Shown here one piece after another: positions 3,201 to 64,000 of a stretch of DNA of 64,000 nt (within the stretch, counting starts at the first letter, position 1; every line of letters starts with the position of its first letter). The stretch is from Sipunculus nudus. Lineage: Eukaryota; Annelida; Sipuncula; Golfingiida; Sipunculidae. The position numbers and the translations under genes were made by a program. The stretch lies in assembly GCA_026874595.1 (NCBI GenBank), contig CM049318.1:55815250-55879249 (forward strand), read 5' to 3'. A model generated the notes under the pieces. That model was given only the letters and a program-made list of their open reading frames with translations. It searched no databases and was not told the DNA's origin.

Positions 3201-5940
3201 TTTGTCGCATATAATGTGGTATTTTATAGAGCAATCATGGTCAATAATGGTGCTAGAAGTCTAAATATTCTTAGAATACCTTTCTTACATGCTGTTTTTT
3301 TTAATGTCTAATTTTCTATTTGTTCTTCTTATCCTAAATTAAACTCAATATATACATATTTTGGGCAGCTTGTGGAACTGAGGAAGATTTAAATTGTGTG
3401 AAACCGATTCTTACCATTCAGGCCTTCAGCATTAAACATAAGCATATAATCAAAACTGTTGGAATTGAGAAGTCCCACACTGGGAACTGACGAGGGTTAG
3501 TCATAATCAACTGCAGCTGGATGGGTGGGAACCCGTAACAGTTACAGTAGAGACAGAAAAAGAGAGATTTCACTCTCAAAGGAAGGCTCAATTTGTGCTG
3601 CAAGTATTTCATATATGCTTGACATGTATGTGATGTATGTGTACCAGAGTGCCATTACTAATTTGGAATGATGATAACAAGCTAGGTGATTTGCAAATGG
3701 TCTGCATCTTCTCGAAGTTGCGATAATACACATTTAACCCAATTGTTATAGTATCTTAGGGGTTCTTTTCGGTCCGTAATGCATGACAATTATATACCTT
3801 GATTCCACTCCTCTTCGTACTTTTGCAGCAGGAAGATTAAACAACTTTACTGGTATGAAGAACCTAGAATTCCTCAAATCAATTGGGTTGACCTTTTTTA
3901 ACTTCTTAAGAATCAAGGGGTTCTCGGTGAAAAACTTGAGATCGCCTTCTTCAAACATTAGCCGAGTAAACACATCTCTCATTGCTGCTGTTTGCCCTTT
4001 CGTTGTTCCTGATTAAGTTTACATGTAAAGAGAATATTTCAGATAAGTGTAAATTCTTAGATATGCAATAGTTAATTTGATTGTTATCGTTTTTGCGCAT
4101 GTCTGAAGTCAGGTTGTAAATTATGTGTCATTTCGAATTAATATGCTTGTTTCATCAGATTGGCTGGTTTTTCAAAAAGGATTATCGCTTTTACGATTAC
4201 AGATTGGAATGTGAACTTTACAATATTACGAGTATACCTGTTAGTTTTCCTGTCAGCATTGCAGCACCGGCAAGTGCAGCTGCAAGACCAACCGATATCT
4301 CCTTGCCCTTTGCTGCTTGAAAGAGGTTAGAATCATCTATCCCGTACCTGTGGTTAGCAACAAAACACCCCTTCTCCGGAGCTGTGAATTCAGCTTTCGT
4401 TTCCCTGTCTAAACGTTGTCCTGACAGGTCATGACGGCCAATCCTGATTGGGTTCCCTGCGTCATTGTCATCCTTAATATATGAGCAGCAGAAAGCAGGG
4501 CACAGAACCACATATTTTTCGGCCAAAAGTTTCAAAGTTTCTCTCAGGTCTGCAGTTATATCATCTTGTGCTATGTCTATAGGCAAGCAAACAATGTCAA
4601 ATATTCCTGTATTTTCAACCAGGTAGTGACAATGTTGTTCAAGCAATATGAGGCTTATCCTTCCAGACGATGTGCTGACATTTTTACTGCCGAGGTGAAA
4701 AAAATCTGGCAGATGTTTGAACGCCTGACATATAGTGCTTGCAATCTTTGTCCCAAGTCCTTGTTTGTCGCACCAATGTGCGTCTTCTTCTTGCGACGGG
4801 CTTTCAAAAGAGGCATACTTAAAATATGGATGATCCTTTTGCACACCCGTGCTAAAAATCAGGATACTTATTCTATTCTCCGCATCTACTTGTGCAGGTA
4901 AAGTCCTTGCAAACTTCTCATAAAGGAAAGCAGAAGTGACTTCTGGTATCTCTAATTCTCTTGTCTGGAAGTGACATTTACTGATTAAACAGGTGAATTG
5001 AGGTAGTGAAATTTAATTTAAAAAAAATCACGCTTGTTACAATGTCTCATATAAATATTAGATCAACTGAAAGGACTTTGTGTTAGTATTACCATAAAAC
5101 TTTAGGTTCTTCTAATATTTTTACCTTCTGCGTTTTTTTGACACCTGAGTCGACTGCCCTGACAAAAGTGTTGTCTTTTGCTGTTGCAGTGCACTTTTCT
5201 TTGCTGGGTGAATCATAAAAAAAAAATTGCTCGATATGTGCGACAAACCTTGTGACAACGCCAAAACAAAGGAAAACGTTTACAAGCAAATGTCTTGAAT
5301 TATGACGTGAAACGCCACTTGTATTAAATACGTAAAGGGAGCATACATGGACGGCTCCATATCCAAACAAGAAGTAAAATCCAAGAAGTAAAATCCAGTC
5401 AGGATAATAAATAATGTTTCTTTCCTGATATTGGAAAATATGTTAATAGTGATGTTTTATAGTTTCGCCTCTTGATATAACAACAGATACCTGTCCTGGG
5501 TGTACACATTTTTTTACTTTTACATCCCAAAGTACAAGAAAGGAAATTGCATATATTTTTAACGTAACGTTTATAAATGAGTTTATCACGCGCTTTAGAG
5601 GTCCATTGATGACATTAAGGAGTTGATATTTGTTAAATATTCTAGAAAATACTTTATCGGGGCTACAAGTAAGTGTATTAGTAGGTCACTCACCCATTAT
5701 TGACGTCATGATTTATCTGGTTATGCACGGTGCGATTTTCCCATTGATCGTAAAGTTTCATTGGTAAAATCAGATTATTGTAATCCTTTATGTTCTCCTC
5801 GGCCAACTTCATGGACTTCATGATCAAAGGATTATCGGAGAGTAACTCGTGGTCCCCCTTTTTGAACAAAAGTCCTCGAAAAACCTGTTTTATATTTTCA
5901 GTACGACTTCCTGATTTTGTGGCTGGACCAAAACATAAAA

Positions 5941-7225: not shown

Positions 7226-7227
7226 CT
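6259..7227 (-). CDS. Exon 1: N-terminal linker and S8-like module 1 (pseudoprotease)
   Basis: The open frame runs back past the ATG at 7225, but no earlier ATG exists, and TTCAG sits directly before the ATG (AG at 7228-7229), so I place a 3' splice site there and a non-coding exon upstream. The first roughly 85 residues are polar, Ser/Thr/Lys-rich and probably disordered. The S8-like core follows: the Asp motif reads LNSGV (Asp to Asn), the His motif reads RGSGTQIAS (His to Ser), and the Ser region GLDISLGLATAVAG has no Ser in the aligned place. The exon ends ACAG|GTAATA at 6259, phase 1. Confidence 0.68.
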
Positions 7228-10200
7228 CTGAAGCATAATAACATAACGTTGTATATTTGGGAAACGTTAATTCTGTATAAGGATTTGTTTGGCACAGTAA
7301 GACGACTAAAAACCGAAGAATAATGTATATTTTTATTACTTTCACCACTTCACCTCTTCCTTTCCAATATATATGACAAATTTAAAACTCCTAAAAATCA
7401 TAAATTAAGGCATAATTGTAAAACTGATTTAAACTTTCTTGTAATAACAGACCTTATAATAAATTGGTCAGCTTTTTTGCAACGGATGTTCGAGTGGCTG
7501 TTAGAGCTAGGCGAAACCAATCAAAACTGCTCGCTCGCAACACCGATGAGTGGCCAGAGTTGCGCAGAGTTGCATTAGGGATGATAGAACGAGGGAGTGG
7601 GTTCTACAGCAAAGGAAAATGTTGGTGAATATTGATAAACGAACATTTTAGGTACCGTTGATAAACGGACTTGAAACGGTTCAGGACACGACACTTACAT
7701 TCCCTGGACATTTGAACTGACAAAACTTCCATGGGTTGGATATACACAATATTTCGAACCTGCCTCAGAGATTTTAAAACATTCCAGTTACTAACATGAC
7801 ATACAAACCCAGGGGCGCCATTACGGGGGTGGGGGGGGGATTCTAATTAACTCACCCCCTGATATTCAGAGAATAATACTTATATATTTGGGAATGGAAT
7901 ATATTAATAATTAGAATTATAGGCTTGAGTTCCATTTCTGAGTTTATTATTAAAAATAATATATCTAAAACTGGTTTAGAAGTAACATTTTTTAAACATT
8001 ATACTTAATTGTCATATATTTGAAATGTGTCACCTGTATGTACATCAAGGTATCTTCTGTCGGTTCTTCTTTTGATAGGCGCATATATCTAGGCTTAGGC
8101 CACACATGGTGTGTGCGCAGTCCATTATCTACGCTTTTATTGGCTACTCTGCGAATTGTGGTAAATAGGGCCCATTAGCCAACAACAGATTTTTTTTTCA
8201 GGATGACTCAGTTTTTTTCAAACTAGACAAGTAATCATTAAAGCTGATTGCAAACTGAACAAAGCCCTGACATGGTTCACAATTTGAGCCTCTCCCTCCC
8301 CTCTCTCTCTCCTTATGTGTGTGTGTGATACATAACGTTTTAGACCGTATGATTTAGAAGTATAAACAGAAAAAGGTTAAGACAGCAAAACAGTCTGTTT
8401 TCCCAGACACACCTAAAGTTTATAACCGAGTTTGTGTGACATAAACAGTTTTAAGGTGTTACTACAATAAATATAGAACATTCTGTCTGAACTACCATTC
8501 CTCAATTGGTTCTAATCAAGTATAGAATCAAATCACCTATGTAAAACTGACGAGTCAGGACTGGGGTCTTGTTTGCTCCAGAAAGGACATCCAATATGCT
8601 CATTGATCCTTACAGCTTGCAAAAGTGCATGTATCGACAAATCTAACTAAATTTAAATTGGCTTAACGAGATTGTAACCAACATTTATAGTAGAAAAGTG
8701 GATATCAAGTGTAATAATGGACATTATCCGCATTTTCCATGCATTCGAAAATACACCAGGGAATGCTATTGCACTTCAGATATAATGTGGTTGAAATGCA
8801 TACAACGAAATGCGTTTACAAGGGCATCCCCGCTGCGCAATGTTAAATGGAAAAAGCTATATATATACCGAACACTGACAGTCGATCACAAGCTTAGACC
8901 GAAAACTGAGCATGTGGATATAGGCCAAGTGCAAAGGAGCACCTGGGCAAGCAACTAGGTTGGATGTTGAATTAATCTCACTTAGATGTACCATAAAGAA
9001 CGGCTTTCTGTATCAAATGAACAATGACCAACCAGTATGCAAACATAAAAAAAAAAAAAACATTTCGAGAAGAGCTATAAGTGCAAAAGGAACTAGGATG
9101 CATAGATCTGGTAACAAGGACACTCATTGTGCCATTTATATCCTCCTGGTTAAAACAAGGGCATTCAGGGTTACTAGTCCACCAATATGGAACTGACACG
9201 TATCTTAAGAAATTTTCCAAAAAATGCTACAATTATAAGTAAACTCTTAAGCTGCATATATAGTGTACTACCACCTGAATGTTATATAACTGTCACAGCG
9301 ATAATGAAATATTGTTTTTATTTTTAGTTTATAGTATGCACTTGTACAGTAGAGCGTTACATATTGATATTACGTTAAGAATTTACATGTATTATTATTA
9401 TTACATTACTGTTGATCAGTATTTTCAGTATTAGTACTGGATCGTGAAAGAGCTAAAGATGTAATTATCAAACTTCAAGCACATATCATGCCGCTTGTTA
9501 TATTTCAAGATTTCCACAGTAGAACATTAGAGAGATCAGAGACTTTTTGCAGAAATACGAGACGAAACCTGTAACAAATCCATTCAGACAAATACAATAC
9601 AAATTTTAGATAGGCCGTTGCGGAATATGACAGAAGGTCTGAACGGCAGAGAGGATCTTCAAACAAAAGGGCCAAACCATCACTACCAACAAGAGTTAAA
9701 AGAGATTAGTAAATATAAAGGAGATAAGGTTAGAATTACACAGACTGACAGAACCGGATATTGAGATGACATTAGTTGTTAGGTATAGATTGTGGTGCTC
9801 ATATTAGCTAAACCTGGGAATGAAAGTATGTACAGATGATACAGAAACATTTCAGAGGTTAAAAATAAGGACAGTTCTATCTGTAGATCAATTTCAGTAA
9901 AAAGATAACCTCTCTCTGGCTTTCAAGTTCCCTTATTTATTCCATTGCCATTTGCATTTAGGATAACTTCAGGCCAAGGTTTCAGTTTGGAAGGATTAGA
10001 CATGATTTTGATCGAGAATGAAAAAGCTACCATTGACATCTGTTTCTAAAAAAGAGCTGGGGTAGTAGACGGATTGGATATTTTGAGGGAGCTAAACTAG
10101 AGGTAATCGAGAAGGATGAGGGTGTAATTTGTAAAATTGTAGACAAAAAATCAAGGATACTGTATAGCAAATTTTACTTAAGAATTATGTACTTTACGAA

Positions 10201-14230: not shown

Positions 14231-16130
14231 GATACGGGTAACCCTAACCCTTCAGGCATGGAAAACTCCAGTAAGTGTTTCTCAATTTTAATATTAATAT
14301 TCGTATATCCATGATACGGGTAACCGTAAGCCTTCGGACATGAAATACTCCAATAATTGTTTGTCACTATTAATATGTGCTAAATCTGGGATACACGTTA
14401 CCCCAACCCTACCTACAGGAAATACTCCATTTAGTGTTTGTCACTGTTAAAATGCTCTATATCTGGTATACAGGTCACCCTAACCCTTTGGGCATGAAAT
14501 ACTCCAGTAAGTGTTTGTTACTTTGAATATTTGGTATATCTGGGATACAGGTTACCCTTCAGGTGTGAAAAACTCCAGTATGTATTTGTCACTATTAATA
14601 TGTGACCCTAACCCGATGGGCATGAAATTTGTCGTGTTCATCACTATTATATAAGGTATATCCAAAAACAGGTTACCCTAACCCTTCGGGCATGAAATAA
14701 TCCAGTAAGTGTTTGTCACTCTTAATATATGCTACATATGTGATACAGGTTACCCTAACCCTTCAGGCATGAATACTCCAGTAAGTGTTTGTCACTAATA
14801 TTAATATATGCTATAGTCAGGATATGGGTTACCTATCCATTCGGTCATAAAATATTCCAGTAAGTATTTGTCCCTTTTAATATTTGGTATATCTGGTATA
14901 CGGATTACCCTAACCCTTCGGGCATGAAATCCTCCCGTAAATTTTTGTCAGTATTAATGTTTGGTATATTGGAGGTACGGGTTACCCCCTGGGGCATGGA
15001 ATACTCCAGTAAGTGTTTGTCACTCTTAATATATACTATATCTGTGATACGGGTTACCCTAACCCTTCAGGAATGGAAAACTCCAGTAAGTGTTTCTCAC
15101 TATTAATATTAATATTCGTATATCCATGATACGGGTTACCGTAAGCCTTCGGACATGAAATACTCCAATAATTGTTTGTCTCTATTAATATGTGCTAAAT
15201 CTGGGATACGGGTTACCCTAACCCTACCTACAGGAAATAGTCAAGTTAGTGTTTGTCACTGTTAAAATCTGCTATATCTGGTATACAGGTTACCCTAACC
15301 CTTTGGGCATGAAATACTCCAGTAAGTGTTTGTAACTTTGAATATTTGGTATATCTGGGATACGGGTTACCCTTCAGGTGTGAAAAACTCCAGTATGTAT
15401 TTGTCACTATTAATATGTGCTATATCTGGTATACGAGTTACCCGAACCCTTCGGGCATGAAATAACCAGTAAGTGTTAGTCACTAATAAATATATCATAA
15501 ATGCATGATACGGGTTACCGTAAATCTTTGGACATGAAAACTCCAGATTTTGTTTGTCACTATATACATGTGCTAAATCTGGGATACGAGATACCCAAAC
15601 CCGATGGGCATGAAATCTGTCGTGTTTGTAACTATTAATATAAGGTATATCCAAAAAACTGGTTACCCTAACCCTTCGGGCATGAAAATCTCAAGTAAGT
15701 GTTAGTAACTATATAAACCTTTCAGTCATGAAATGCTCAAGTAAGCATTTGACACTAGTAATATGTATATATATATGGTATTTCCGTGATAGAGGTTACC
15801 CTATAAAATATGGTATTTCCTGGATAAGAATGACCCTAAGCCTTCGGACATGAAGTATAAATATTCATGTAAGTATTTGTCACTATTCAGTTAATATGTG
15901 CTATATCTGGGATACGAGATACCCTTACTGTAGGGGCATGAAAAACTATGGTAAGTCTTTGTCACTATTAATATTTGGTATATCAAAGATACAGGTTACC
16001 CTAACCCTTCAGGCATGAATCACTCCAGTAAGTGTTTTTCACTCTTAATATATGCTATATACGTGATACGGGTTACCCTAAACCTTCGGGCATGAAAACT
16101 CCAGTAAGTGTTTGTCACTATTAATACGTC
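14231..16130. repeat. Satellite 1: about 78-bp tandem unit
   Basis: Roughly two dozen diverged copies of a 76-82-bp unit. Each has GATACGGGTTACCCTAACCC, then TTCGGGCATGAAATACTCC, AGTAAGTGTTTGTCACT and an AT-rich spacer. A longer block of several units recurs with a period of about 815 bp (GATAC at 14231 and 15046 start the same series of variant units). Confidence 0.9.
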
Positions 16131-16169: not shown

Positions 16170-17900
16170 GATCGTATTCAGGGTGTGTCACAAGATTGTC
16201 ACTGTCACAAACATGTCGCAAACATGGCACAGACTTTCCCAAGCAAATTTACAAGCAAGTATAAAGGGTGTGGGTCACAAGATTGTCACTGTCACAAGAT
16301 TGTCACAAACATAGCATAGACTTTCCCAAGCAAATTTACAAGCAAGTATAAAGGGTGTGTGTCACAAGTTTGTCACTGTCACAAGATTGTCACAAACATG
16401 GCATAGACTTTCCCAAGCAAATTTACAAGCAAGTATAAACGGTGTGTGTCACAAGATTGTCACTGTCACAAGATTGTCACAAACATGGCATAGACTTTCC
16501 CAAGCAAATTTACCAGCAAGCATAAAGGGAGTGTGTGACAAGATTGTCACAAGATTGTCACAAACATGGCATAGACTTTCCCAAGCAAATTTACAAGCAA
16601 GTATAAGGGGTGTGTCGAAAAAGGTTGTCACTGTCACAAACATGTCGCAAACATGGCACAGACTTTCCCAAGCAAATTTACAAGCAAGTATAAAGTGTGT
16701 GTGTCACAAGATTGTCACTGTCACAAGATTGTCACAAACGTGGCATAGACTTTCCCAAGCAAATTTACAAGCAAGTATAAACGGTGTGTGTCACAAGATT
16801 GTCAGTGTCACAAGATTGTCACAAACATGGCATAGACTTTCCCAAGCAAATTTACCAGCAAGCATAAAGGGAGTGTGTCACAAGATTGTCACAAGATTGT
16901 CACAAACATAGCATAGACTTTCCCAAGCAAATTTACAAGCAAGTATAAACGGTGTGTGTCACAAGATTGTCAGTGTCACAAGATTGTCACAAACATGGCA
17001 TAGACTTTCCCAAGCAAATTTACCAGCAAGCATAAAGGGAATGTGTCACAAGATTGTCACAAGATTGTCACTGTCACAAGATTGTCACAAACATGGCACA
17101 GAATTTCCTAAGCAAATTTACAAGCAAGTATAAAGGGTGTGTGTCACAAGATAGTCACTGTCACAAGATTGTCACAAACATGGCACAGACTTTCCCAAGC
17201 AATATACAAGCAAGTATAAAGGGAGTGTGTCACAAGATTGTCACAAACATGGCATATACCTTCCCAAGCAAATTTACAAGCAAGTACAAACGGTGTGTGT
17301 CACAAGATTGTCAGTGTCACAAGATTGTCACAAACATGGCATAGACTTTCCCAAGCAAATTTACCAGCAAGCATAAAGGGAGTGTGTCACAAGATTGTCA
17401 CAAGATTGTCACAAACATGGCATAGACTTTCCCAAGCAAATTTATAAGCAGGTATAAAGGGTGTGTGTCACAAGATTATCACTGTCACAAGATTGTCACA
17501 AACATTGCATAGACTTTCCCAATCAAATTTACAAGCAAGTATAAAGGGTGTGTGTCACAAGATTGTCACTGTCACAAGATTGTCGCAAACATGGCACAGA
17601 CTTTCCCGAGCAAATTTACAAGCAAGTTAAAAAAAGGTTGTGTGTCACAAGATTGTCACTGTCACAAGATTGTCACAAACATGGCATTGACTTTCCCAAG
17701 CAAATTTACAAGCAAGCATAAAGGGAGTGTGTCACAAGATTTTCACAAGATTTACACAAGCATGGCATAGACTTTCCGAAGCAAATTTACAAGCAAGTAT
17801 AAGGGGTGTGTGTCAGAAGATTGTCACTGTCACAAGATTGTCACAGACATGGCACATACTGTCTCAAGTAAATTTATAAGCAAGTATAAAGGGTGTGTGT
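16170..17900. repeat. Satellite 2: 87-bp tandem unit
   Basis: About 20 copies of a unit built from GTCACAAGATTGTCACTGTC, CAAACATGGCATAGACTTTC and CCAAGCAAATTTACAAGCAA. The full unit is 87 bp; shorter variants lack one internal CACAAGATTGT segment. Full and short units alternate in places (period about 168 bp at 16776, 16944 and, doubled, 17285). Because 87 is a multiple of three, one frame stays open for 184 codons; this is a repeat artefact and not a gene. Confidence 0.92.
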
Positions 17901-18430
17901 CAGACTATGGCTAGCCGTTGTCCGGTGAACCATCCCTAACCCCTACCACCGCCCCTATATCTTTCGACAGGGAAAGGGGCCCTGTGTGAAGAGGGTTGGG
18001 GAAATGGAGGTAGTCCCGAGATCTCCGGGTTTTAGATAGTATAGATACATCCGCTTTTGGCATCTTCAAAATGTAGGATGTGCAAAACGGAGAAATATGA
18101 ATCATGGACGGGAGGGAGAGACATACAGACAGAGGGACAGACACTCCAAAACTAATCCCATCCATGGTAAGCATAAGAGCAAGCACTGACCCAAATATGT
18201 GTTAGTTTTCAGTGTCCCCTGAAGGTGTGATCATATGTCATTGTGGCTATTTTAATTTCATTCTCCCCTGAAGATGTCACTACATGTCATAGCACTTTTG
18301 ATGTGTTTTAGTTTTTATTACCCCTGAAGATGTCTCCACATGACATAATTTTTGTTGGGAAATTGGAACCAAAATATTTTTGTTTATTGTTTTGGAGCTG
18401 GTGACACTCCGAAACCAATCCTAAGGAAGG

Positions 18431-26185: not shown

Positions 26186-27230
26186 TTGTTTCAAAATCTA
26201 TGCATAGCATAGTACAAAGCCAGGCTCTTTTCATGTAAATGAGGGGTACAACTCCTTTATTGACTTTAAAAAAAGAGTTTGCTGCTACGGAGGCAAACGT
26301 GCCGTCTGAATCCAAAGAAGAATCCGTAGCTTGCGGGGTAAAAACCTCATTTGATTCCTGCAAGGAATTTAATAAGGCTAGGTCCTTTCAAGTCTCCTGC
26401 GAGGAATATCCTCTAAATAAGGCTGAGTCCTTTTTTGGCTCTTGCGAGAGTATTTCAAATGAGGCCAGGTCCTCATATGACAAACAGAAGTTTGTTTCTG
26501 CTGAGGAAAATTGCTCTGTTGACTCTCATGAGGAGTTTGATTGTAAAAAGGATACAGACTCTGAAAAAATGACTCTGAAAAAGAGTTTACAACTGACACT
26601 GTCAGTTTCAGTTCTTTGTTTGAGGAAACTGAGATAGTAGATTCCTCTCCTGACTCCGAAATGGAGTTATTTGAGCCATTTATACATGATTGTTTTGTGT
26701 CACTTTCAAGTGATGTTTCAGATTCTACCCCTATTAAAATTATGAAGGACCTGGTTCAGGCAAAACATGTTAGCAAACACTTTGCCATTTTCTAATAGGT
26801 CTTTTACTGGTGCACTTGTGTTGTTAATGGTGTGTTTTCAGACAAGCACACTTCAGTTCCGCTTCACAGTATACATTTAAAGTCAAATTAAATTTCTGGG
26901 AATATTACTGTGGGCATAAGAACTACTTTACCTTTTAAGGGAATTCAGTTGCTGCTAGGCAATGATGTTGCAGGTGACAAAGTACAGCTTGTACCAATAG
27001 TGACAGAAAAGCCGTCACTTGATCAGGACACTGATCCTGAAAGTCAGGAAATTCCTGGTTTGTATCCTCCATGTGCTGTAACTAGATTTATGCCCAAGAA
27101 AAACACATGAGGATAATGGTCCAGATAATAACACTCTGGGAGTCACTAGTGACTCGTCTAACGATTCGCCCGTACAGGATGCATTATTTTCAAGGTCAGA
27201 ACTTATCGCAGAACAGCATAAGGACCCTGA
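26186..27230 (+). pseudogene. gag-pol spacer and protease remnant
   Basis: 26239-26637 is an open acidic, Cys/Ser-rich repetitive stretch (SC-E-F-A-S-like motif recurring) of unknown role. 26785-27110 matches the C-terminal part of the element's aspartic protease, with LPFSNRSFTGAL, then LPFKGIQLLLGNDVAG. The Asp-Thr-Gly active site expected upstream is not readable, so the protease is inactive. Confidence 0.55.
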
Positions 27231-28450
27231 TATTTCATGTTTGTTTCCCAGGGCAGTTTCTAAGGATGAACTGTCAAAGAACCCAGTTTGTTTCTATGTT
27301 AAAAATGGAGTGCTTATGCGTAAATGGCGACCACCTGATGTATGCGCTGATGATAAGTGGGCCATCAAACATCAAATAGTAGTCCCCAAAAGCTACCGCA
27401 ATGAAATTTTAAGCATGGCACATGAGGCTCCTTTGTCTGGCCATTTAGGTATAAATAAAACTTATCAGAAAGTTAGTAGACACTTTTATTGGCCGAACCT
27501 CATCACAGATGTTGTACAATATTGTAAATCAGGCCATACATGCCAGATGGTAGGCAAGCCCAATCAGAATCCTCCTAAAGCCCCACTTAGGCCTATACGT
27601 GCTTTCCACCAACCATTAAGTAGGTTTATTGTTGATTGTGTTGGACCACTGCCCAAAACAAAATCTGGTCATGAATACTTGCTGACAATTATGTGCGCAT
27701 CTACCAGGTTCCCTGAGGCAAAACCATCGCGCAAAATTATTGCCAAAGGTGTTGTCAAGGCTCTGACTAAGTTTTTTACAATTTTTGGATTACCAAAATC
27801 CGTCCAGTTTGACCAAGGGTATAATTTTATGTCTGGCTTATTCCAGCAAGTTATGCTTGAGCTTGGTATAAAACAGTACAGCTCTTCGCCATACCATCCT
27901 GAAAGTCAGGGCGCCCTCGAGCGTTTTCACCAGACATTAAAAAAAAACACAATTAGGACTTATTGTTATGACACACAGAAAGACTGGGATGCAGGAATCC
28001 ACCTATTGCTGTTTGCTGTCAGAGAATCATTTCAAGAGTTTCAGTCCCTTTGAACTAGTTTTCGAACATTCAGTTCGAGGTCCATTAAAACTGCTTAAAG
28101 GAAAACTCTTATGTGAAAATCCTGATTCTCTTAGTTTATTTCAGTATATATCAGCCTTTCGCACTAAATACACAATGCTTGTGAGATTGCAAAGTCTATT
28201 CTAAAATCTGCACAAAATAAAATGAAAAGAAAGTATGGCAAGCACACTGTTAGTAGGACGTTTGAGCCTGGTGAAAAGGTCCTTGCCTTACTACCCATCC
28301 CTGGCAGACCTCTGCAAGCTAGGTATTTTGGCCCTTACATTGTTGACAAGAAAGTCAGTGATTTAAATCACATACTGTTAACACCAGATAGGCGTAAGAA
28401 AAAAAAACTGTGCCATGTTAACATGTTGAAACCATATTATGACAGAAATA
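27230..28450 (+). pseudogene. Integrase and GPY/F-type module, frameshifted
   Basis: 27241-28053 encodes the HHCC zinc region (PLSGHLG...HFYWPNL...CKSGHTC, where the usual second Cys reads Gly) and the catalytic core: Asp in IVDCVGPLP, Asp in VQFDQGYNFM, Glu in SPYHPESQGALERF. The DDE set is intact. At about 28045 the frame shifts: FSPFELVF continues in another frame (to a stop at 28204). The C-terminal chromatin-facing module (RYFGPYIV) is at 28222-28593. Confidence 0.85.
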
Positions 28451-28689
28451 GCACATCAGAGAATGTACATAATGTGACTGTTGTTAATTGTGTAAAAAAT
28501 GACCCTGGCCCAGTTAAAGTAGATACTGATTGTAAGTGTGATTTAGACATTCAGTGTGGAACAGTACCACCTAAAAAAATCAGACGTGCTTAACAACATT
28601 GATGCCAAACTGTCACACCTTACCGCAAACAACAACAAGACCTCAAGAACCTGCTGCAGAATTATGAACATTTGTTTAGTGCCATTCCA

Positions 28690-29955
28690 AAGTGAACTAA
28701 CATATTGTGCCATGACGTCGATGTTGGCGAGGCAAGCGCAGTCAAGCAGCATCCTTATAGACTGAATCCAGAAAAACAAAAGTATCTGCAAGATGAGGTT
28801 CAATATTTGCTGGACAATGATTTTATTGAAACTAGTAACAGTAACTGGAGTTCACCATGTATTCTTGTGCCAAAACCTGATGAAAGTTACGGTATGTGCA
28901 CAGATTATCGAAAACTGAACTCTGTAATCAAGACCGACACATTCCCGATTCAGAGGATCGCTGATTGTATTGATAGAGCCGGTCGCCCCAGATATGTCTC
29001 CAAGTTTGACTTGCTAAAAGGATTCTGGCAAGTTCCTCTGACAGAACGAGCAAAAGAAGTGTCCGCATTTGTGACGCCGCAAGGACTGTACCATGAAGAT
29101 CTCGCCAGCCACGTTCCTCATCCATATGGTTGGCAAGGACATTCAGGGCTGCGACGCATATATTGATGATCTTATCGTGTACAGCGACACCTGGGAGAAA
29201 TATTTGCAAATTCTTCGCGACCTTTTCGAAAGACTCAGCGTAGCACGTCTGACCATCAACTTAGTGAAATCTGAGTTTTTTTTCATGCACAAGTAACATT
29301 TTTGAGTCATATTGTAGGATAGGGTCAAGTTAAACCCGTTGATGCTAAAATAAGTGCTATCACTGCATTTTCTTGACCAGAAAACAAAAAGCAAATAATG
29401 CGTTTTCTTGGTATGGTTGGATACTACAGAAAGTTCTGTCCAAATTTTTCTACCGTGGCTGAACCTTTAACTAATTTGTTAAAGAAAAAACAAAATTTTG
29501 TATGGAACGTTCAGTGTGAAAATGCATTTCAGAATTTGAAGGCAATTCTAAAAAACTCACCAGTTTTAGCAGCTTCGGACTTTTCTGTACCCTTTCAGTC
29601 AGCTGTGGATGCTGCTGCTGATGCTGTGTTGTTACAGGAAGGCAATGATGGCATAGATCATCCAATTTGTTATTTTTTAGGAAAGTTTAATGCAAACCAG
29701 ATAAACTACTCCACTATTGAAAAAGAATGTTTGGCTTTAATTTTAGCATCGCAAGATTTTGAAGTTTATGTTACTTCATCAGTCAAGCCTATCATTGTCT
29801 TCAGTGATCACAATACCCTCACGCTCATGAACAAGTAAAAGTGAAAAAATCAAAGATTGTTGAGATGGAGTTAGTTTTAACAGGATCACCATCTTGAAAT
29901 TAGACACATTAAAGGGAAAGACAATGGACTTGCTGATTGCTTATCGAGATGTTTA
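28690..29955 (+). pseudogene. Reverse transcriptase and RNase H, broken
   Basis: 28705-29090 holds the N-terminal part: SPCILVPKPD, CTDYRKLN and the catalytic-Asp motif SKFDLLKGFWQVPL. After TPQGLY about 25 bp are missing, including the usual MPFG block, and the frame changes. The catalytic YIDD box is intact at about 29159. A further frame change near 29290-29400 precedes the C-terminal part (FLGMVGYYRKF) and RNase H, with Asp in SAVDAAADA, Glu in TIEKECLAL and Asp in FSDHNTLT. The end motif GKDNGLADCLSR is at about 29915. Confidence 0.85.
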
Positions 29956-39248: not shown

Positions 39249-41986
39249 TCAACCCATCTCTCCTTCATCCTTGTCATTTTCCCTCAAGGGAAACAACCTC
39301 TTTATCTCAGGCATACTTTCCATTGTGTATCCATGTTTCTTTTTGTAATGGCTTTGAAGACTTTGTTTGGTTGTAAATCCGCAAGAACATTCCGTACATT
39401 TAAATGGTTTCCTCCCAGAATGTGTTAACATATGCACATCTAAATTTGTCTTATCAACAAAAGGTTTACCACAGCGGTCACAGGTAAACGAGTATGTTTT
39501 AGTGTGATAATTCAAATGCCTCCTTAATGCCGGTCCTGAACGGAAAACTTTGGGGCATTCAGGGCAATGAAACTTTGGACGGTCGTGAACTTTTCTCTTG
39601 TGGGCATTTACCCTAATTTTGGTTGGAAAGGGTTTCCCACACTGATCACAAAGATAGGTATCCAGGCATAGAGCCGCATGCTGAGCTCTTCTGTGTTGTC
39701 CAAGTGAAATGATAGTGGTCACCTTTTTCCCACATATATCACATTTGTAAACTTTACAACCAAATTCCTGTCGGTGTTCCCGTGCTTGTTTCCTGGTACA
39801 TATAAGTAATCCGCAGGTAGCACAATTTACAGTTTTGAAGCGGAAATTCTTGGTATGAAACACCAGAAGATGCCTACACAAATCTAACCTGCAATTGTAC
39901 TCGATTTTACATCGATCACAAGAAAGATGCAGGAGTGATTCATCATGGCTGACCTGAAAGGCCCTTTCATTGTGTCTGAAGATCTTGCTGTAGGGCATGA
40001 TAGTCAGTTCTTGGTCTGGTGCTATATCATTACATGCAACCAAATAAATGGTATCTTCTTTATAAACCTGAAACATATTGCCATTTGTATTACTACCTCT
40101 GACAAAGTGAAACCAGTTACTTCGTGTGAGATCGCTGGTGTCTACAACTGTGGCTGTCCTGCTCTCCAAATCAAAATAAGGCCAATAGTACTCCTCATTG
40201 CAGGCTGTACAATCAAGCTCCTCATATGGTAAAGTACATCCTACAACTGGCCCAAACTGAGTGCCTTTACGGATGAGTTTGTTTGTAACAACCAAGGTTT
40301 TTAAATTTCCATCTACATCTGATGACACATATTTAAGACCCTTTGGCAGATCAGGAAGGCTCTCTTCCTCAGAATGTCTTTTCAGTGGAGGGTCTGGATT
40401 GGCAATTACATGAGGTGGATTGCAAATGAAACATAAATTTTCATGCATTGGTTGTTCATGAACATAATAACATTTCGAACACCTTCCCCTTTCTGCTTTC
40501 ACTCTTTTCACTTTTTTTAGTTCAAAGTCTTCATCACTTTCACCAGATGAATAAGAAATAATGCTGGAGTCAGAATTTCCATATGGATTGTAGTCACGAT
40601 CTCCATGCCTTGCCTGCTTTGTCCTGATTTTAGCTGCATCAGTTGTTGTAACATCTTCCCCAAAAATAGTTTTAGATTTCTTACGGACACGTTTAGTAGC
40701 TACTCTGGCTGCCCTTCTTTGTGGTAAGCCCCCAGGTCTTTCTTTCAATAACACCTCTTCCTCCTCATCTGTGCTATCAGAGAAATCTGGCTCATATGGT
40801 GGGGAGTCAGACACCTGGTCTTCACTGACCAAATCGTGAATTTCCTTTTCCTCTGCTGCCATATAGTCATACATAAGGTTTTGCTTATCTTGTTGCATAA
40901 CCACTGTTTCTCCAACTTCACTTGCAGTATCAGTTGAAGAGATCACTTTCTCTTCATAACTCTCAACTTTGACATATGCACGTATATCAGCAAGATCTGT
41001 TTGTTCATTTTCTTCAGATAATTCTTGTGCTGCTTTCTTGTGATATCTAATGTATTCCTCATCCTGTGGCATAAAACCTATTTCTCCAACTTCACTTGCA
41101 GTATCAGTTTCAGTATCAGAGATCACATTCGCTTCGGTCCCAATAACTGGTCCCGATCCACTAATATCCTTCCTATTTGAAGTGATGCTGCTTGACACAC
41201 GACCAAAGTTACTTTCTAATCTTTCAAGAGAATCCATACCTTTCCCATGGCTTTTTTTACTGTTTCCAGAGGGAAGTTCCCCTTCTGTGGCAGTTCTCAT
41301 CTGGATAATAAAATGGTCATTTGAATGATAGCCAGTAATATTACTTCCCAGTGGTGGACTGAGTGGTAAGGATGTATCATATTTTCTCGATCTCTTATCA
41401 TATGTAGAAGTAACATTTGACGAAGTATAGTTGTGAACTGACGTGACTTTCTCACTTGCTAGCATTGGGTTAAATGGTCTGGGAATAATGGCTGGTTCAG
41501 GCACACATTGTGTTCTGTTTAAATTTGAATTATTTAGCTGTATGTCATCTTGATGACTCTCATCAAATGCAGTTGTAGATACTGCAAATGTCCTGATTAC
41601 ATGATTTTCACAGTCATACTGTACATCTGTTTGAGATTCTTGTATAAACAGTTGAAGACTAAATGCATAAAACACCTGAATGCCACACTTGCTTGTATGT
41701 AAGAGTTTCATAAATTTCAAACACCTGTGTATCGGAAGTGTCATATCACAGATATACACAGCAGTGATTGTTTTACAGTCAAAACAGTCCTTGCCATTGT
41801 TACTGCCAGGTAAAAGAGAACTCATGAGGTGCAATGAGACATTCTGTGCCAATGACTGATGAAGATGGAACTTTATATTTGTGAGACGAGAATACTTCTT
41901 TTCCTGTTGCACAGAAACGGGTTTAAACAGCTGGGCGGGGTAGAGAGCATCAGGCACCAGGTCCATCCCCAAAGCTGTCATGGCCC
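39249..41986 (-). CDS. PRDM gene, large exon (PR domain and zinc fingers)
   Basis: The acceptor CTCTTTCAG| has AG at 41987-41988. The exon is open for 912 codons to the stop at 39249. The PR domain includes KGTQFGPVVG, the SNWFHFVRGS block and the ELTIMPYSK end. Zinc fingers: finger 1 (CDRC...H), finger 2 with CATC...H...C (C2HC variant), then five C2H2 fingers with CDIC, CDQC, CPEC, CDRC and CTEC. Only one fingertip-to-fingertip linker, HSGRKPFKC, resembles the canonical TGEKP type; the others are diverged. Confidence 0.93.
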
Positions 41987-44900
41987 CTGAAAGAGCAAAG
42001 ATGTACAAGTAGATCTTCAACAATTTACATTTGACAAGAATAAAAAATTCCACAAGTACATCTGGGAAACCACAAGCCTGCATCTGTTTGAGTGTTTCAG
42101 AAAATGAAGACTATATAGTAAATACTGTGCTATTAAATATCAGTGGTAAATACAGAAATAAGAGGGACATGATAAATACTGTTCTGGTATAAAGAATAGT
42201 GGTAAATACAGGTATAAGAAAGATAAGGTAAATACTCTACCATTACATCCAATTGTAAATATAGGAAGATGATATAGTTAATACTGTACCAGTCAATATC
42301 AGTGAAACTTACACTGAGTGACAACTTCCCAAATTTGCAGATAAGTGGATAATACCAACAACAGTATTATAAACCAGTAATAGTGGTGTTCACAAAAATA
42401 CCATTATGATCATGTACAAGGTAAGAATAATTAAAGAAAGGACACCACTAAGCAAAACATCCCCTCATAACAGGTGCATAATGAGATAGGATGTATTAAA
42501 CTATACATCTGGGCAGTTTGAAAATCAGTAAGACAGCAGTGTGACATTGGTCTTGGACCTTAAAATCAATAGTAATCTTCTTCCTCCATTGAAAGGTGAC
42601 CCAAATGTGAAAGATGGTAGATTTTGGGAGAAAACTTCGATTAAAAATACATCCACAAATTTTAAAAGAAATTGGTTCTGTGAACTTCTGACCTCAAAAT
42701 CAATAGGGTTCTCCTCTTATAGATAAGTGAGTTATATGACGTGTTGAAAGGTTCTGCTTAAGATACATCCACAAACATTTAAAGAAATAAGTCTGGTGAT
42801 CCTGAACCTCTGACCTAAACATCAATAGGGCTCTTCCCGTTGGTTGTTGGAAGTTTTTTGGAAGATGGAGGGTTTATATCCTATTGTGTGGAAGTTGCAA
42901 GGGGAAAATAAAAGACAAACTGCACCAATATTAAATCAGACATTTTCATTTAATCTATTAAGGCCTAACAAGGGACCTATGGGTCACTGTGCTCACCTGA
43001 AGTTGACCTCGAATGTAAAACTCTAATATCAAATGGAGATAAAATGTGAGAAGAAGAGGTAATATAGGCCATGGTGGGTTTTATGATTGGTTTGTATTGA
43101 TGAGCAAGAAAGTGTTGCTAATAACCTGACCATGTGTTTCCTAATGTTGAAATTGAAGCATGTGAGCAGTTTGTGAACAAATGATCTGTACTATTACCAT
43201 TATCATTAGTTGGCTTTTTGATTAACTGTTTACAGTTCAGTAGTTAACACATTTGTTCAACGGAATCGATTTTTTTTATATATTTTATTAAAATACATGT
43301 ATTTTTTTTATTTTATGAAATGTATACAGCTGATATATAACTAATGTCCACAGTACACAGATGAAAGGACTTGGTGGTGGTTGGGAGGGGGGGTGGTGTG
43401 GAATGATGCGAGTTACAACATATTTGTATTATTATAGTGTATATACACAGGATTTTCACTTAATTCAACAATGCTTACAGGATAAAAAAGTTCATTCACA
43501 ATTACTTAATTTTTTAAACAAGGGACCCATGGGTCACTGTGCTAAGCTGAAGTTGACCTTTAAGGTAAAAATCTAAAATAATACCAAGTGGAGATAAAGT
43601 GCAAGAGGAAGAGGTAATATATACCATGGTTGGTTTTTATGATTGGTTTGTATTAATGAGCAATGCATTAATGGCTTTTTGATTAACTGTTGACATTTCA
43701 GTAGTTTACACATTTGTTCAATTGAATCTATTTTTTGTATAATATATATTATTAAATATATATGTATTTTTTTTTATTTTGTGAAACGTATGGAGTTGAA
43801 ATATAACTAATAAACAACATACATACATGGCAAACAAAGCCTGATCTAAAATTCTGCTGAGGCAGGAAAATAATGAACAAATGATTGTATTAGATCCTCA
43901 TTTTTTTATCACATCAATTTTTTTTTTATTATAAGTTTATATTATTATACATTTCCAATATAACATATATAACTGAAATAAATGTTGATTCATAATTCTC
44001 AATTGTATTATCATAAATCTCAATCTTTTCAGATAACACCACAACATGCATACAAATGTTCATTTATTTTTTAACACAAAAATATATCTTTAAAATCTGC
44101 AAAACAATAAATATCTAAAAATAATTCTTGATTTAGATTTCACAATTTTAAATTGTCTTTATTTATCCCTAATGTGCTACATATTTGATAAATTTTAGCA
44201 TACTGATGGGTTTAACTGTATTTGTTAAAATCATTTAAAAGAAAATTAATTTCTTTAAAAATGCTACATTATTACAACATGGCATCTTCTGGATTACACC
44301 TTGAATTACTTTTTCAAAGAAAGTTTTTGTATATTAGAGTGAAACAGCATTACAATTAAGGAGATATAGTGAAAACAATAACAATTACTGCATAACACTT
44401 GGTGCATAACACTTGGTGGGTTGGGTTGGGGGGGGGGGGGGATGGTGGTGGTGATATGAGAATAACTGTATACCTGTCACACCAGGGGATCTCCCCCAGT
44501 GACTTTGACAAATCAGAAACCCTGGCATAGCTGACTTCCAGTGGCCAGAAGTAGGCTGCCTGCATCTTGACTAAGCAAATGACTGCAATAGAGCCTCAAG
44601 AAAAAAATCAATAACTAGCCTAATTTTCAAGCTTTTATTTTGAAATTTCATATTTAAAATTAAATACTTACATTTACATGCTGTGAAAATTAAATCAATA
44701 GTCACAAAGGAAATAAATGTGCCATGGTCAAAGTTGGGCAAAATTTAAGGTACTGATTTTATTTTTACGCTAGTAACTTAAATTTTTTTTTTATAAAATT
44801 CATAACTAGTTTTGGGGATACAATTGAATCTTATTTAAACAAAGTTATATCCTTGGGGGAAAAAGTCTCTAGTTTCAAAATTTTTCATGTTAGGCGAGTA

Positions 44901-60082: not shown

Positions 60083-61272
60083 CAAATGGCTGAGGGTTAA
60101 TCTTTTTTTTAAGATTTAGCAGTGTCCGGGCACTCCCTTATTTGACCTATGTAACTTATAAAAATGACTAAAATATTGATATATTATTTATAGTAAGGTA
60201 TAATAGAAGTCTATAAGGCATTGCAGCCACATTTTTTTAAAACAAAAATGTGGGCCAGTTGCTGTTTTAGCACCCTAATGGTCAGCCTTGTATACCTAAT
60301 GCACCCATACCATTACAAATATTGGGTATTGATTATCTTACCTCTCTATTCTCTTTTACTAAAAACTTTTAATGTTTGCAAAAAAAATATTAAAACTCCC
60401 CCAAGAGTTGATCCCTATATGATGAATCAGTACCAGTGAACTTGAATAAATATGGGATATTGCCATAGCAGTCTCTTGTGTAAAAGGAGGAGAAAAATCA
60501 CTGGCTGGTGCAGCCGGAAGCCGGGCCAGTTTAAGCAGGCAAGCGTGATTCAGCCAGATGGTCATTAGCACTGTCTTATCTGACCATCCCCACTTTATCA
60601 GCTTATATACGTTATAACTGTGTTTTTTTAAATGTGATCATTAAACAAATACGAGGCTGCAATTAATTGTTGGTACGCTCACTGCTGCAAGGAAGATTAT
60701 ATGAAACCTGTAAAACCTGACGTTTATCCATAAATGAGAGTCCATGTGTAGCTTTGCCCTGAATATTTAAAAGCGAGTCCTTTGTTACAAGATAAAGTTC
60801 TAATGCAATATATCATTTCTAAGCTTCTTCATGTTCATGCTACCATTTTATTTTCGACTAAACAACAGACAATGAATACAAGACCATATTAAATTTCAGG
60901 ATAATTTGTAATGAAAAGCGCTATATGCTAAGTGCACATGCAGCTTTATTGAAGGAATGGGCTGGACAGACTGTCTGCCTAGTTGTTTGCCTGCAATTTT
61001 TCAGGCAGGCATATTCTACCTCCATACACAAGAGTATCGGCATTAGGGAAATCCTGTATTTGTAATCTATCACTCAGTCAATTTTAGTTATATTTCACTT
61101 GTGCCATTTTGACCTGTACATTTACAAAAAATTATTATAAGCCTTATTATAGTTTAAATTTTATCACAATAGCAGATGTATAATATTCATTAACTTACAG
61201 GCCTTTTGTCATCTGGAGTTTATGAACAAACACAAGCAAAGTGCTCACACATATACATGTGTTTATTTACAG
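60083..61272. other. No gene seen; upstream flank or 5' intron of the ZSWIM2-like gene
   Basis: A GC-richer stretch at 60505-60590 (GCCGGAAGCCGGGCCAG) looks repeat-derived. CAGGCAGGCA and its complement pair as a small hairpin near 60980-61015. No promoter motif is convincing. Confidence 0.4.
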
Positions 61273-61467
61273 ATCAGACCTGTATTCTTAGCTGATGGAC
61301 TAGTAAAGAGTGCGGCAATGCCAAGAAATGTTGCATATCGCCGAACCTGCAGTGACGCAGTCAGCTGGCGACAGGACCAGAGCCAAGAAGCGACCATCTA
61401 TATCCTGCGTAATATGGGTCCTACAGGTTTCTTGCTAAAAGAAGAAGGTGAACAAAAATATCTAAAG
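61273..61467 (+). CDS. ZSWIM2: ZSWIM2-like exon with start codon
   Basis: A 3' splice site GTTTATTTACAG| (AG at 61271-61272) suggests a 5' UTR exon further left. The ATG at 61318 is chosen because the 50 residues after it align with the ZSWIM2 N-terminus from its first Met (MPRNVAYRR). The frame is also open before it. The exon ends CTAAAG|GTAAAA, phase 0. Confidence 0.82.
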
Positions 61468-63616
61468 GTAAAATTAAGTCACTAACACAGTATACAGATA
61501 GTCAAGTCCACAGGATTCTGCCAATTCCTGCTACCAAAATTAGGCGCCTACTACCTGTGTATGATAACATAATGATATATATTATAACCTTGGGTAGTTA
61601 CAATACATTTAATGATAATACAATATGTGTTGTGATATATGTGCCACATGATAAAGTACATATTCAGATTCAAAAGATGTGTGTTACATAATAGTTGAAT
61701 TCCAAATACATTTTCATTTCCAAACCAGATATCTGTTTCAGGAACAAATGATAAGGCCAAAATAAAAAAAAAAGTATGGTTCTCAGGCACTGCCTGCATT
61801 AATTTAGACCCCTGGCATGAAGAATTTTGATTTTGATTTTCATCTTTAAAGAAGGTAAAATAATACAATTTTGATAAGATTTCCTTTGTTATGTTGCTGT
61901 TTTACCTGTTTAGCAAAAAAAAATTCTGTTATTATCATACTTTTCCCTGATCATATGACACTTTTATTGAAACATAAAAAAAATCGACCCCTTGCACCTA
62001 TTTTTCTGAAAAAAAGTGCCTCAGAACAATCCCTTTTTTTACTTAAACCCATAACTTTTGAAGTATTTCAAAAATTCCCTCATTTGGCTAGATTTTCTGA
62101 GTTTAAACACATTGCATATTTATTTTCAGATCTGAAGATCAATATATCATAGACTTAAAGTTAAAGCCCCTAGAGCTAAAGTAACTGATGAAAATTAGGT
62201 AGAGATGCAACAAAAGCTTGGCAATTAGATGCAGTTAATTCCTAGCAAGATCCAAAGGTAAACAATTAATCCATCTTTGAACAGACAGTTGAGATTTTTT
62301 TAAATTTTCAGGTGTACCTGGGTGACCCTCACACCTGTACATGTTGTAAAATGTTTCAGGTGTACCTGGTGACCCTTACACACATACATATTGTTAAATG
62401 TTTCAGATGTACCTGGGTGACCCTCACACATGTACATATTGTTAAATGTTTCAGGTATACCTGGGTGACCCTCACACCTGTACATGTTGTAAAATTTTTC
62501 AGGTGTACCTGGTGACCCTTACACACATACATATTGTTAAATGTTTCAGATGTACTTGGGTGACCCTCACACATGTACATATTGTTAAATGTTTCAGGTG
62601 TACCTGGGTGACCCTCACACTTGTACATGTTGTTAAATGTTTCAGGTGTACCTGGGTGACCCTCACACATGTACATGTTGTTTAATGTTTCAGGTGTACC
62701 TGGGTGACCCTCCCACATGTTCATGTTGTTAAATTTTCAGGTGTACCTGGGTGACCCTCACACCTGTACATGTTGTAAAATGTTTCAGGTGCACCTGGTG
62801 ACCCTTACAAACATACATATTGTTAAATGTTTCAGATGTACTTGGATGACCCTCACACATGTACATATTGTTAAATGTTTCAGGTGTAACTGGGTGACCC
62901 TCACACTTGTACATGTTGTTAAATGTTTCAGGTGTACCTGGGTGACCCTCACACATGTTCATGTTGTTTAATGTTTCAGGTGTACCTGGTGACCCTCCCA
63001 CATGTTCATGTTGTTAAATGTTTCAGGTGTACCTGGGTGACCCTCACACATGTTCATGTTGTTAAATGTTTCAGGTGTACCTGGGTGACCCTCACACTTG
63101 TACATGTTGTTAAATGTTTCAGGTGTACCTGGGTGACCCTCACACTTGTACATGTTGTTTAATGTTTCAGGTGTACCTGAGTGACCCTCACACGTTCATG
63201 TTGTTAAATGTTTCAGGTGTACCTGGGTGACCCTCACACATGTTCATGTTGTTAAATGTTTCAGGTGTACCTGGGTGACCCTCACACATGTTGTTAAATG
63301 TTTCAGGTGTACCTGGGTGACCCTCACACATGTACATGTTGTTTAATGTTTCAGGTGTACCTGGGTGACCCTCACACATGTTCATGTTGTTAAATGTTTC
63401 AGGTGTACCTGGGTGACCCTCACACATGTACATGTTGTTTAATGTTTCAGGTGTACCTGGGTGACCCTCACACATGTACATGTTGTTTAATGTTTCAGGT
63501 GTACCTGGGTGACCCTCACACTTGTACATGTTCCGTGTACAGAAAGGAGAAGGACCTCTGTAAACACATCTGCTGGGTCATACTGAAAAAGTTCCGGGTG
63601 CCCCGGACAAATCCAG
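61318..63616 (+). CDS. ZSWIM2: ZSWIM2-like E3 ubiquitin ligase, first two coding exons (3' partial)
   Basis: Exons 61318-61467 and 63499-63616 join in phase 0 and encode 89 residues plus one base. They match the N-terminus of ZSWIM2 as I know it: a W-x-QDQ motif, then IYILRNMGPTGFLLKEE, then VYLGDPHTCTC...LCKHICWVILKKFRVPR, the SWIM zinc motif C-x-C-x9-C-x-H. Family knowledge: ZSWIM2 (MEX) is a self-ubiquitinating E3 ligase of about 600 residues with SWIM, two RING-type and ZZ-type zinc modules, testis-enriched in mammals. The RING and ZZ exons must lie beyond 64000. The intron in between ends in a remarkable array of exon-start copies. Confidence 0.85.
61468..62311 (+). other. Intron of the ZSWIM2-like gene, first part
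   Basis: Contains sequence related to the repeat at 53.88-54.04 kb, once in direct (61767-61800) and once in inverted (61895-62040) orientation. The rest is AT-rich. Confidence 0.7.
62312..63498 (+). repeat. Tandem array of 25 copies of a 3' splice site plus exon start
   Basis: The unit is 48 bp (some 42-47): GTGTACCTGGGTGACCCTCA, CACATGTACATG, then TTGTTAAATGTTTCAG. It equals the last about 18 bp of the intron plus the first about 30 bp of the SWIM exon. I count starts at 62312, 62360, 62407, 62455, 62503, 62550, 62598, 62646, 62694, 62741, 62789, 62836, 62884, 62932, 62980, 63027, 63075, 63123, 63171, 63217, 63265, 63307, 63355, 63403 and 63451; the next copy, at 63499, is the real exon. 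Most copies keep TTTCAG| and an in-frame VYLGDPHTC. Most also have TAA right after, so they cannot act as full exons. Confidence 0.95.
63499..63616 (+). CDS. ZSWIM2: ZSWIM2-like SWIM-domain exon
   Basis: Begins after TTTCAG| and ends AATCCAG|GTCAGC, 118 nt, phase 0 in and phase 1 out. It contains the whole SWIM zinc motif: Cys-x-Cys in HTCTC, then CKH in DLCKHICW. This is the only copy of the repeated exon start that continues into the rest of the exon. Confidence 0.88.
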
Positions 63617-64000
63617 GTCAGCTTAAATATGTTTAATATCATTTTTTTACATCAAATTGACTTTATTTTTTATTTATATAATATATATAAATTTATCTTT
63701 CATATTTGCATAATTAATTTTATTTACTGATTTTAAAAACTAAACAAATGCACTTCAGATTTATTTTGATTATATGTAACTTGTTTTTGTGCCGTTAATT
63801 AATAATTTACTCATTTAATTGATTTAGATACCAGTGGCCCTGCAATGCATCTTGTTTACATCTCAATATTTGATTATCAATTTTATTTACCTGCTAGTAA
63901 GACAAACTGAGGATCACGATTTGTAGATATACAGAATTAATTACATCCCCCCAGCAGTGTAAAATATTCAATAATAAAATAAAAATTAATCATGATTTAG
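63617..64000 (+). other. Intron of the ZSWIM2-like gene (runs off the window)
   Basis: AT-rich, no open frame of note. The next exon is not reached before 64000. Confidence 0.7.

What the first reader, a model, noticed from the sequence alone, without database searches (positions are those of the whole stretch)
62312..63616. An exon start and its splice acceptor have become a 26-copy minisatellite in front of the real exon
The 48-bp unit spans the 3' splice site and first codons of the ZSWIM2-like SWIM exon. About 25 copies, most with an intact TTTCAG| and VYLGDPHTC coding, precede the true exon in the same intron. The gene thus carries a row of near-identical decoy acceptors, each with half a zinc-binding motif. 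How the spliceosome picks the right one, and whether the array affects expression, is an open question. I know of no described case in this gene.
Basis: partly seen in the sequence, partly recalled or inferred. Interest (0 to 1): 0.85.

Follow-up and report, generated by a model that had tools for sequence, protein, structure and literature searches.

The report
Minisatellite made of repeated splice acceptors
In an animal gene, the junction where one coding segment begins has been copied 25 extra times in a row in front of the real one, a natural test of how cells choose the right splice site; the kind of structure is already known from lancelets under the name mirage.

Summary
Between 62312 and 63498 lie 25 head-to-tail units (18 of 48 bp, the rest 42-47), each joining the first ~34 bases of a SWIM zinc-finger exon (63499-63616) to ~14 bases of intron end. 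All 26 acceptors (25 decoys, 1 true) keep TTTCAG. Only the last copy continues into the unique half of the SWIM motif. By translation 23 of 25 decoys lead to a stop; sites 24 and 25 add 32 or 16 residues in frame. Decoys 23 and 25 equal the true site from -28 to +23, and predicted RNA accessibility does not single out the true site. Best explanation: a duplication across the 3' splice site was amplified; the array stays intronic because the last acceptor defines a short exon with its donor, and decoy use mostly makes NMD targets. That part is inferred; no RNA data were available. [quoted passage not shown] By structure this is a further, long member. Polymorphism, species and splicing were not testable.

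The parts
61318..61467 (+). coding part of the preceding exon (MPRN...QKYLK, 50 codons, ends in phase 0), followed by donor AAG|GTAAAA; a likely acceptor TTTATTTACAG ends at 61272
   Evidence: start codon and acceptor are inferred, not shown by RNA
61468..63498 (+). intron that holds the array (2031 nt)
   Evidence: inferred from donor, acceptor and the SWIM match of the joined exons
62300..62311 (+). TTAAATTTTCAG, probable original acceptor of the exon, with a T-rich tract before it; identical to the last 12 nt of unit 9 (62729-62740)
62312..63498 (+). 25 tandem units (42-48 bp), each exon start plus intron end, each ending in TTTCAG
63403..63498 (+). units 24 and 25: the only decoys whose use leaves the reading frame open (32 and 16 extra residues)
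63499..63616 (+). true SWIM exon (VYLGDPHTCTCSVYRKEKDLCKHICWVILKKFRVPRTNP), followed by donor CAG|GTCAGC

Best explanation
This is a mirage-type minisatellite. A short tandem duplication that joined about 34 bases of the start of the SWIM exon to about 14 bases of the end of its intron put a second 3' splice site in front of the exon, and unequal exchange or slippage raised it to 25 extra copies, partly in blocks of 3 and 6 units. The array is spliced out as intron. Each unit is close to a self-contained acceptor: the copied exon bases of one unit (CTCAC, in the Pro-His codons) can serve as branch site for the next AG, 28 nt downstream, with no other AG between. The last acceptor is chosen mainly because it is the one that defines a short exon (118 nt) with the donor at 63617. 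Slips to sites 24 or 25 would give slightly longer proteins; slips to sites 1-23 give stop-containing mRNA that NMD should remove. The array is tolerated rather than useful. Shown: the array, its boundaries, reading frames and local signals. Inferred: origin by duplication, branch sites, exon definition, NMD, neutrality.
For: Array and acceptors. The 12 bases TTAAATTTTCAG before unit 1 recur exactly at the end of unit 9, which places the intron end of the duplication. Block turnover: units 4-9 vs 10-15 agree at 278 of 287 columns and units 1-3 vs 4-6 at 140 of 143; in units 1-12 identity is highest at lags 3, 6 and 9 (0.917, 0.937, 0.972; few pairs at lag 9); 17 distinct sequences in 25 units; mean pairwise identity 0.889 in units 1-12 and 0.936 in 13-25. 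Branch and AG: for acceptors 2-26, CTCAC or CTTAC lies 22-28 nt upstream in 23 of 25 and the AG-free zone is 47-48 nt in 23 of 25. Frames: 23 of 25 decoys reach a stop 223-1171 nt before the exon end; sites 24 and 25 are open. Donors by a simple matrix: 7.32 bits for 63617, 7.04 for 61468, 4.44 for CAG|GTGTAC in the array. The joined exons match SWIM with 30.3 bits against a cut-off of 19.6. Lancelet mirages are reported not to disturb regular splicing (passages of PMC3087553, and PMC3902484).
Against: No RNA evidence. Exon length does not cleanly separate site 26 (118 nt) from sites 25 and 24 (166 and 214 nt). Nearby signals cannot tell the true site from decoys 23 and 25, identical from -28 to +23. 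Predicted accessibility of TTTCAG does not favour site 26 (0.033, against 0.151 at site 1). Site 1 has the best pyrimidine tract (11 of 15 against 8-10 of 15), and a first-AG choice would take it. The donor at 63617 has C at +3, which is uncommon (recalled), and it is not the best in the region: an intronic GT at 62258 scores 7.38. The branch-site match counts as one event because the units are copies, and a YTNAY in 31 nt is common (0.35-0.4 under equal bases, hand estimate). TTTCAG being invariant has p about 0.03, post hoc. The donor matrix used recalled human-like frequencies.
Confidence: 0.72

Rival explanations
1. Ladder of ratchet points: because most decoys read CAG|GT, splicing to one recreates a 5' splice site (AAG|GTGTAC), which can be spliced again to a later copy. 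Every path that ends at site 26 gives the same mRNA, so the array corrects its own mistakes.
For: GT follows the acceptor in 22 of 25 decoys (23 of 26 with the true site); the regenerated site is AAG|GTGTAC; a juxtaposed acceptor and donor is the layout of Drosophila ratchet points (passages of PMC8605326).
Against: The regenerated donor is weak: CAG|GTGTAC scores 4.44 bits against 7.04 for the real donor, whereas most Drosophila ratchet points are said to have strong regenerated donors. GTGTAC is simply what the Val-Tyr codons give. Sites 3, 6 and 12 have lost the GT.
Confidence: 0.08
2. Alternative acceptor use has a function: sites 24-26 give SWIM domains with 32, 16 or 0 extra residues, and the other sites lower expression through NMD, so copy number tunes dose.
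For: Units 24 and 25 are open in frame and the other 23 decoys lead to a stop; near-identical local signals make slips plausible.
Against: 9 of 25 units (TTTAATG in 6, AAAAT in 3) lack the usual stop, so two such units in a row at the end has a hand-computed chance of about 0.12. No conservation or RNA data.
Confidence: 0.12
3. Assembly artefact: the true array has one or a few copies, or a very different number.
For: Lancelet mirage arrays differ between assemblies (passages of PMC3902484) and one was assembled aberrantly (passages of PMC3087553).
Against: 17 distinct unit sequences with ordered blocks of 3 and 6 are not a simple repetition of one read.
Confidence: 0.07
4. The gene copy is dead and the array grew after loss of constraint.
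For: Choice of the first AG (site 1) would give a stop.
Against: Both exons keep open frames, matching phase, donors and an intact SWIM motif. The rest of the gene lies beyond the window.
Confidence: 0.06

Closest known systems
Mirage minisatellites of amphioxus (Adh3, globins BflGb6 and BflGb9, troponin C, PGBD5)
   Same: Minisatellite-like tandem copies of an intron-exon boundary, with AG/GT signals in many copies; BflGb6 duplicates the 3' end of an intron plus the 5' part of the next exon, as here (passages of PMC3087553; PMC3902484).
   Different: Here 25 extra copies, mostly 48 bp, against 6 and 3 repeat units of 150-160 bp in the two BflGb6 haplotypes; Adh3 units are 10-72 bp. The Adh paper itself is not held, so its copy number is unknown to me. 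The gene differs; the organism here is unidentified, so whether the group differs is open.
[quoted passage not shown]
   Same: Duplication across an intron-exon boundary, with most splicing signals inherited from the parent intron (abstract of PMC4974935).
   Different: There a duplication made a new intron; here many copies extend an old intron and no new intron is shown.
Recursive-splicing ratchet points (Drosophila)
   Same: Acceptor directly followed by a GT donor (passages of PMC8605326).
   Different: Weak donor, a 2-kb intron, 23 such sites in a row; no evidence of use.

Membership tests
mirage minisatellite | tandem repeat unit spans an exon-intron boundary | tested here: met
   units hold the exon-start bases plus intron end with TTTCAG
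mirage minisatellite | array lies next to the authentic exon of the same gene | tested here: met
   last unit abuts 63499; the joined exons match Pfam SWIM
mirage minisatellite | concerted turnover inside the array | tested here: met
   3- and 6-unit blocks, more uniform 3' half
mirage minisatellite | length polymorphism between haplotypes or tissues | not testable with these tools
   one sequence only; own-genome search did not complete
mirage minisatellite | regular splicing undisturbed | not testable with these tools
   no RNA data
ratchet point (recursive splicing) | AG|GT juxtaposition | tested here: met
   23 of 26 sites
ratchet point (recursive splicing) | strong regenerated donor (usual, not obligatory) | tested here: not met
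   CAG|GTGTAC 4.44 against 7.04 bits for the true donor, simple recalled matrix
SWIM zinc finger protein (ZSWIM2-like) | CxCxnCxH SWIM motif | tested here: met
   PF04434, E 2.8e-07, 30.3 bits, cut-off 19.6; PDB 9p40 MEKK1 SWIM-RING, E 9.3e-05
SWIM zinc finger protein (ZSWIM2-like) | RING and ZZ domains downstream (recalled) | not testable with these tools
   beyond the window end

The most novel reading that the evidence does not exclude
The array is a self-correcting ladder of 22 ratchet-type decoy sites: a mis-splice to any GT-bearing decoy recreates a 5' splice site that is spliced on to the true exon, so a growing minisatellite of decoys stays harmless. That would explain why splice-boundary minisatellites are tolerated at exons that begin with GT.
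Probability: 0.08. Interest if true: 0.8.

Novelty: new member of a known kind. Interest (0 to 1): 0.5.

Why it matters
It is a natural experiment on acceptor choice: 26 acceptors in series, two decoys identical to the true one from -28 to +23, with sequence differences and frames that report which one was used. It adds a long example to the mirages and, if the host is not a lancelet, would carry them to another animal group. It also bears on intron growth by tandem duplication.

Tried and rejected
RNA structure as the selector: rejected. With a 100-nt window all 26 acceptors are below the region's mean accessibility (0.154), with 200 nt 24 of 26 are (mean 0.121; sites 1 and 10 are above), and site 26 is not favoured. 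The last two units plus exon fold only mildly better than shuffles as RNA (z -1.82, 11 of 200 shuffles as good), two units as DNA less so (z -0.98, 29 of 200). Rfam: 0 families in 61000-64000 at gathering score. Selection on TTTCAG: weak (p about 0.03, post hoc). Relatives: an exact 19-base pattern in viral contigs, 0 hits; the 89-residue two-exon protein in viral and prokaryote contigs, no confirmed relative (4 and 32 pattern matches, 0 confirmed); these collections are not of animals. Two other arrays (14231-16126, 16183-17902) were read by eye; I recognised no exon boundary in them. The bacterial promoter scan has no bearing here. Chicken MUC2 (PMC3549977, passages) proved irrelevant. A frame table was off by one base at the start codon and is replaced; I also do not use the query q1, which came from that misread frame.

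Full report
What is there. The window holds part of an animal gene on the + strand. An exon ending at 61467 (AAG|GTAAAA) reads MPRNVAYRRTCSDAVSWRQDQSQEATIYILRNMGPTGFLLKEEGEQKYLK from an ATG at 61318, and an exon at 63499-63616 reads VYLGDPHTCTCSVYRKEKDLCKHICWVILKKFRVPRTNP. Joined in phase 0 they match the Pfam SWIM zinc finger (PF04434, E 2.8e-07, 30.3 bits, cut-off 19.6) and, in the PDB, the MEKK1 SWIM and RING domains (9p40, E 9.3e-05). ZSWIM2 is a name from recall; no call names it for this gene. The rest of the gene lies beyond 64000. The organism is not identified: the window is AT-rich (37% GC) and holds a PRDM-like zinc finger gene, a subtilase-like open frame and retroelement pieces (which was given 8 of the open frames).

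The array. TRF finds 26.0 copies of a 48-bp unit at 62300-63532 with 90% matches. Cutting at TTTCAG gives 26 acceptors and 25 units: 18 of 48 bp, 5 of 47, one of 46, one of 42. A 29-base core occurs 22 times with up to 3 mismatches, all in the array, and 0 times in 100 shuffles. The unit was not found elsewhere in the window. VYLGDPHTC is intact in 15 of 25 decoys and in the true exon; the full SWIM exon occurs once in the window, and only it carries the CxH half of the motif.

How it arose (inferred). The sequence before unit 1 ends TTAAATTTTCAG, and the same 12 bases end unit 9. The first 34 bases of the true exon are those of the units; in units 7, 17 and 18 all 34 agree. So the unit is about 34 bases of exon start plus about 14 of intron end, and the acceptor at 62311, with the more T-rich tract, is probably the original one. 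The exon now lies 1187 bp from it. Units 1-3, 4-6 and 10-12 form one three-unit type (140, 138 and 139 of 143 in pairs) and units 4-9 and 10-15 look like a six-unit duplication (278 of 287). The 3' half is more uniform (0.936 against 0.889). These are ordinary signs of minisatellite turnover and speak against a simple assembly error, without excluding a wrong count.

What each acceptor would do. With the donor at 63617 the exon would be 118 nt from site 26, 166 from site 25, 214 from site 24, up to 1305 from site 1. Sites 24 and 25 stay open with 32 and 16 extra residues; sites 1-23 (23 of 25 decoys) meet a stop 223-1171 nt before the exon end, far enough for NMD by the usual 50-nt rule, which is recalled.

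What could tell the true site from the decoys. Decoys 9, 15, 19, 23 and 25 equal the true site from -20 to +9, and 23 and 25 from -28 to +23; none of 25 does from -30 to +34. Upstream of acceptors 2-26, CTCAC or CTTAC lies at 22-28 nt in 23 of 25, the other two (sites 10 and 16) having only TTCAT at 17-18; the AG-free zone is 47-48 nt in 23 of 25, the other two (sites 20 and 22) 35 and 42. So the exon half of one unit can supply the branch site of the next. This is one event copied many times and not strong statistical evidence. Site 1 has the most pyrimidines (11 of 15) but only 18 AG-free bases. Predicted accessibility of TTTCAG is highest at site 1 (0.151) and 0.033 at site 26 with a 100-nt window; 0.153 and 0.034 with 200 nt. 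The remaining difference is the downstream context: the unique exon body and the donor CAG|GTCAGC, which ranks 2 of 214 GTs in the region (7.32 bits), though with an uncommon C at +3 (recalled). Hence exon definition is my preferred selector. It predicts some leakage to sites 25 and 24.

The ratchet idea. Because the exon starts with GT, 22 of 25 decoys read AG|GT, as ratchet points do, and a splice to such a decoy leaves for example AAG|GTGTAC. All paths ending at site 26 give one mRNA. The donor is weak by a simple matrix (4.44 bits), and most Drosophila ratchet points are said to have strong regenerated donors (PMC8605326, passages), so I give it 0.08.

What is known. [quoted passage not shown] Passages of PMC3902484 add PGBD5 and cite troponin C. 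The abstract of PMC4974935 describes a duplication across an intron-exon boundary that made a new intron. In the searches I made I saw no such array in ZSWIM2 or in a bivalve; the bivalve search returned 0 papers, several others listed only part of their hits (20 of 38, 12 of 33, 15 of 1,408), and subscription papers are mostly missing from the library, the Adh paper included. By structure this is a mirage; length polymorphism and undisturbed splicing, two further reported features, could not be tested.

Limits. No RNA, no reads, no relatives and no own-genome search. Splice-site scores come from a simple matrix with recalled frequencies, not from MaxEntScan.

Noticed in passing
14231-16126: Irregular 77-bp tandem array whose unit contains CCCTAACCCT and a GTAAGTG donor-like word; I recognised no exon beside it.
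   Followed up: partly
16183-17902: Tandem array (87-, 168- and 255-bp periods) built of TGTCACAAGATTGTCAC words.
   Followed up: no
468-1289, 4221-5012, 6245-7381 (minus strand): Three open frames: the first matches subtilase (PF00082, E 3.3e-11); the second has no Pfam match at 0.01; the third was not scanned but shares 100 of 249 residues with the second. Possibly a local gene family.
   Followed up: partly
27082-29163 (plus strand): Retroelement pieces in separate open frames, integrase (PF17921, PF00665) lying upstream of reverse transcriptase (PF00078).
   Followed up: no
39252-42110 (minus strand): 953-codon open frame with a PR/SET domain and C2H2 zinc fingers, PRDM-like.
   Followed up: partly
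62359-63577 (minus strand): Long antisense open frames across the array (126, 94 and 129 codons), probably a by-product of the 48-bp period.
   Followed up: no
62258: The highest-scoring donor-like GT of 61400-63800 (AAGGTAAAC, 7.38 bits, 1 of 214) lies about 53 nt before the end of the first array acceptor.
   Followed up: no
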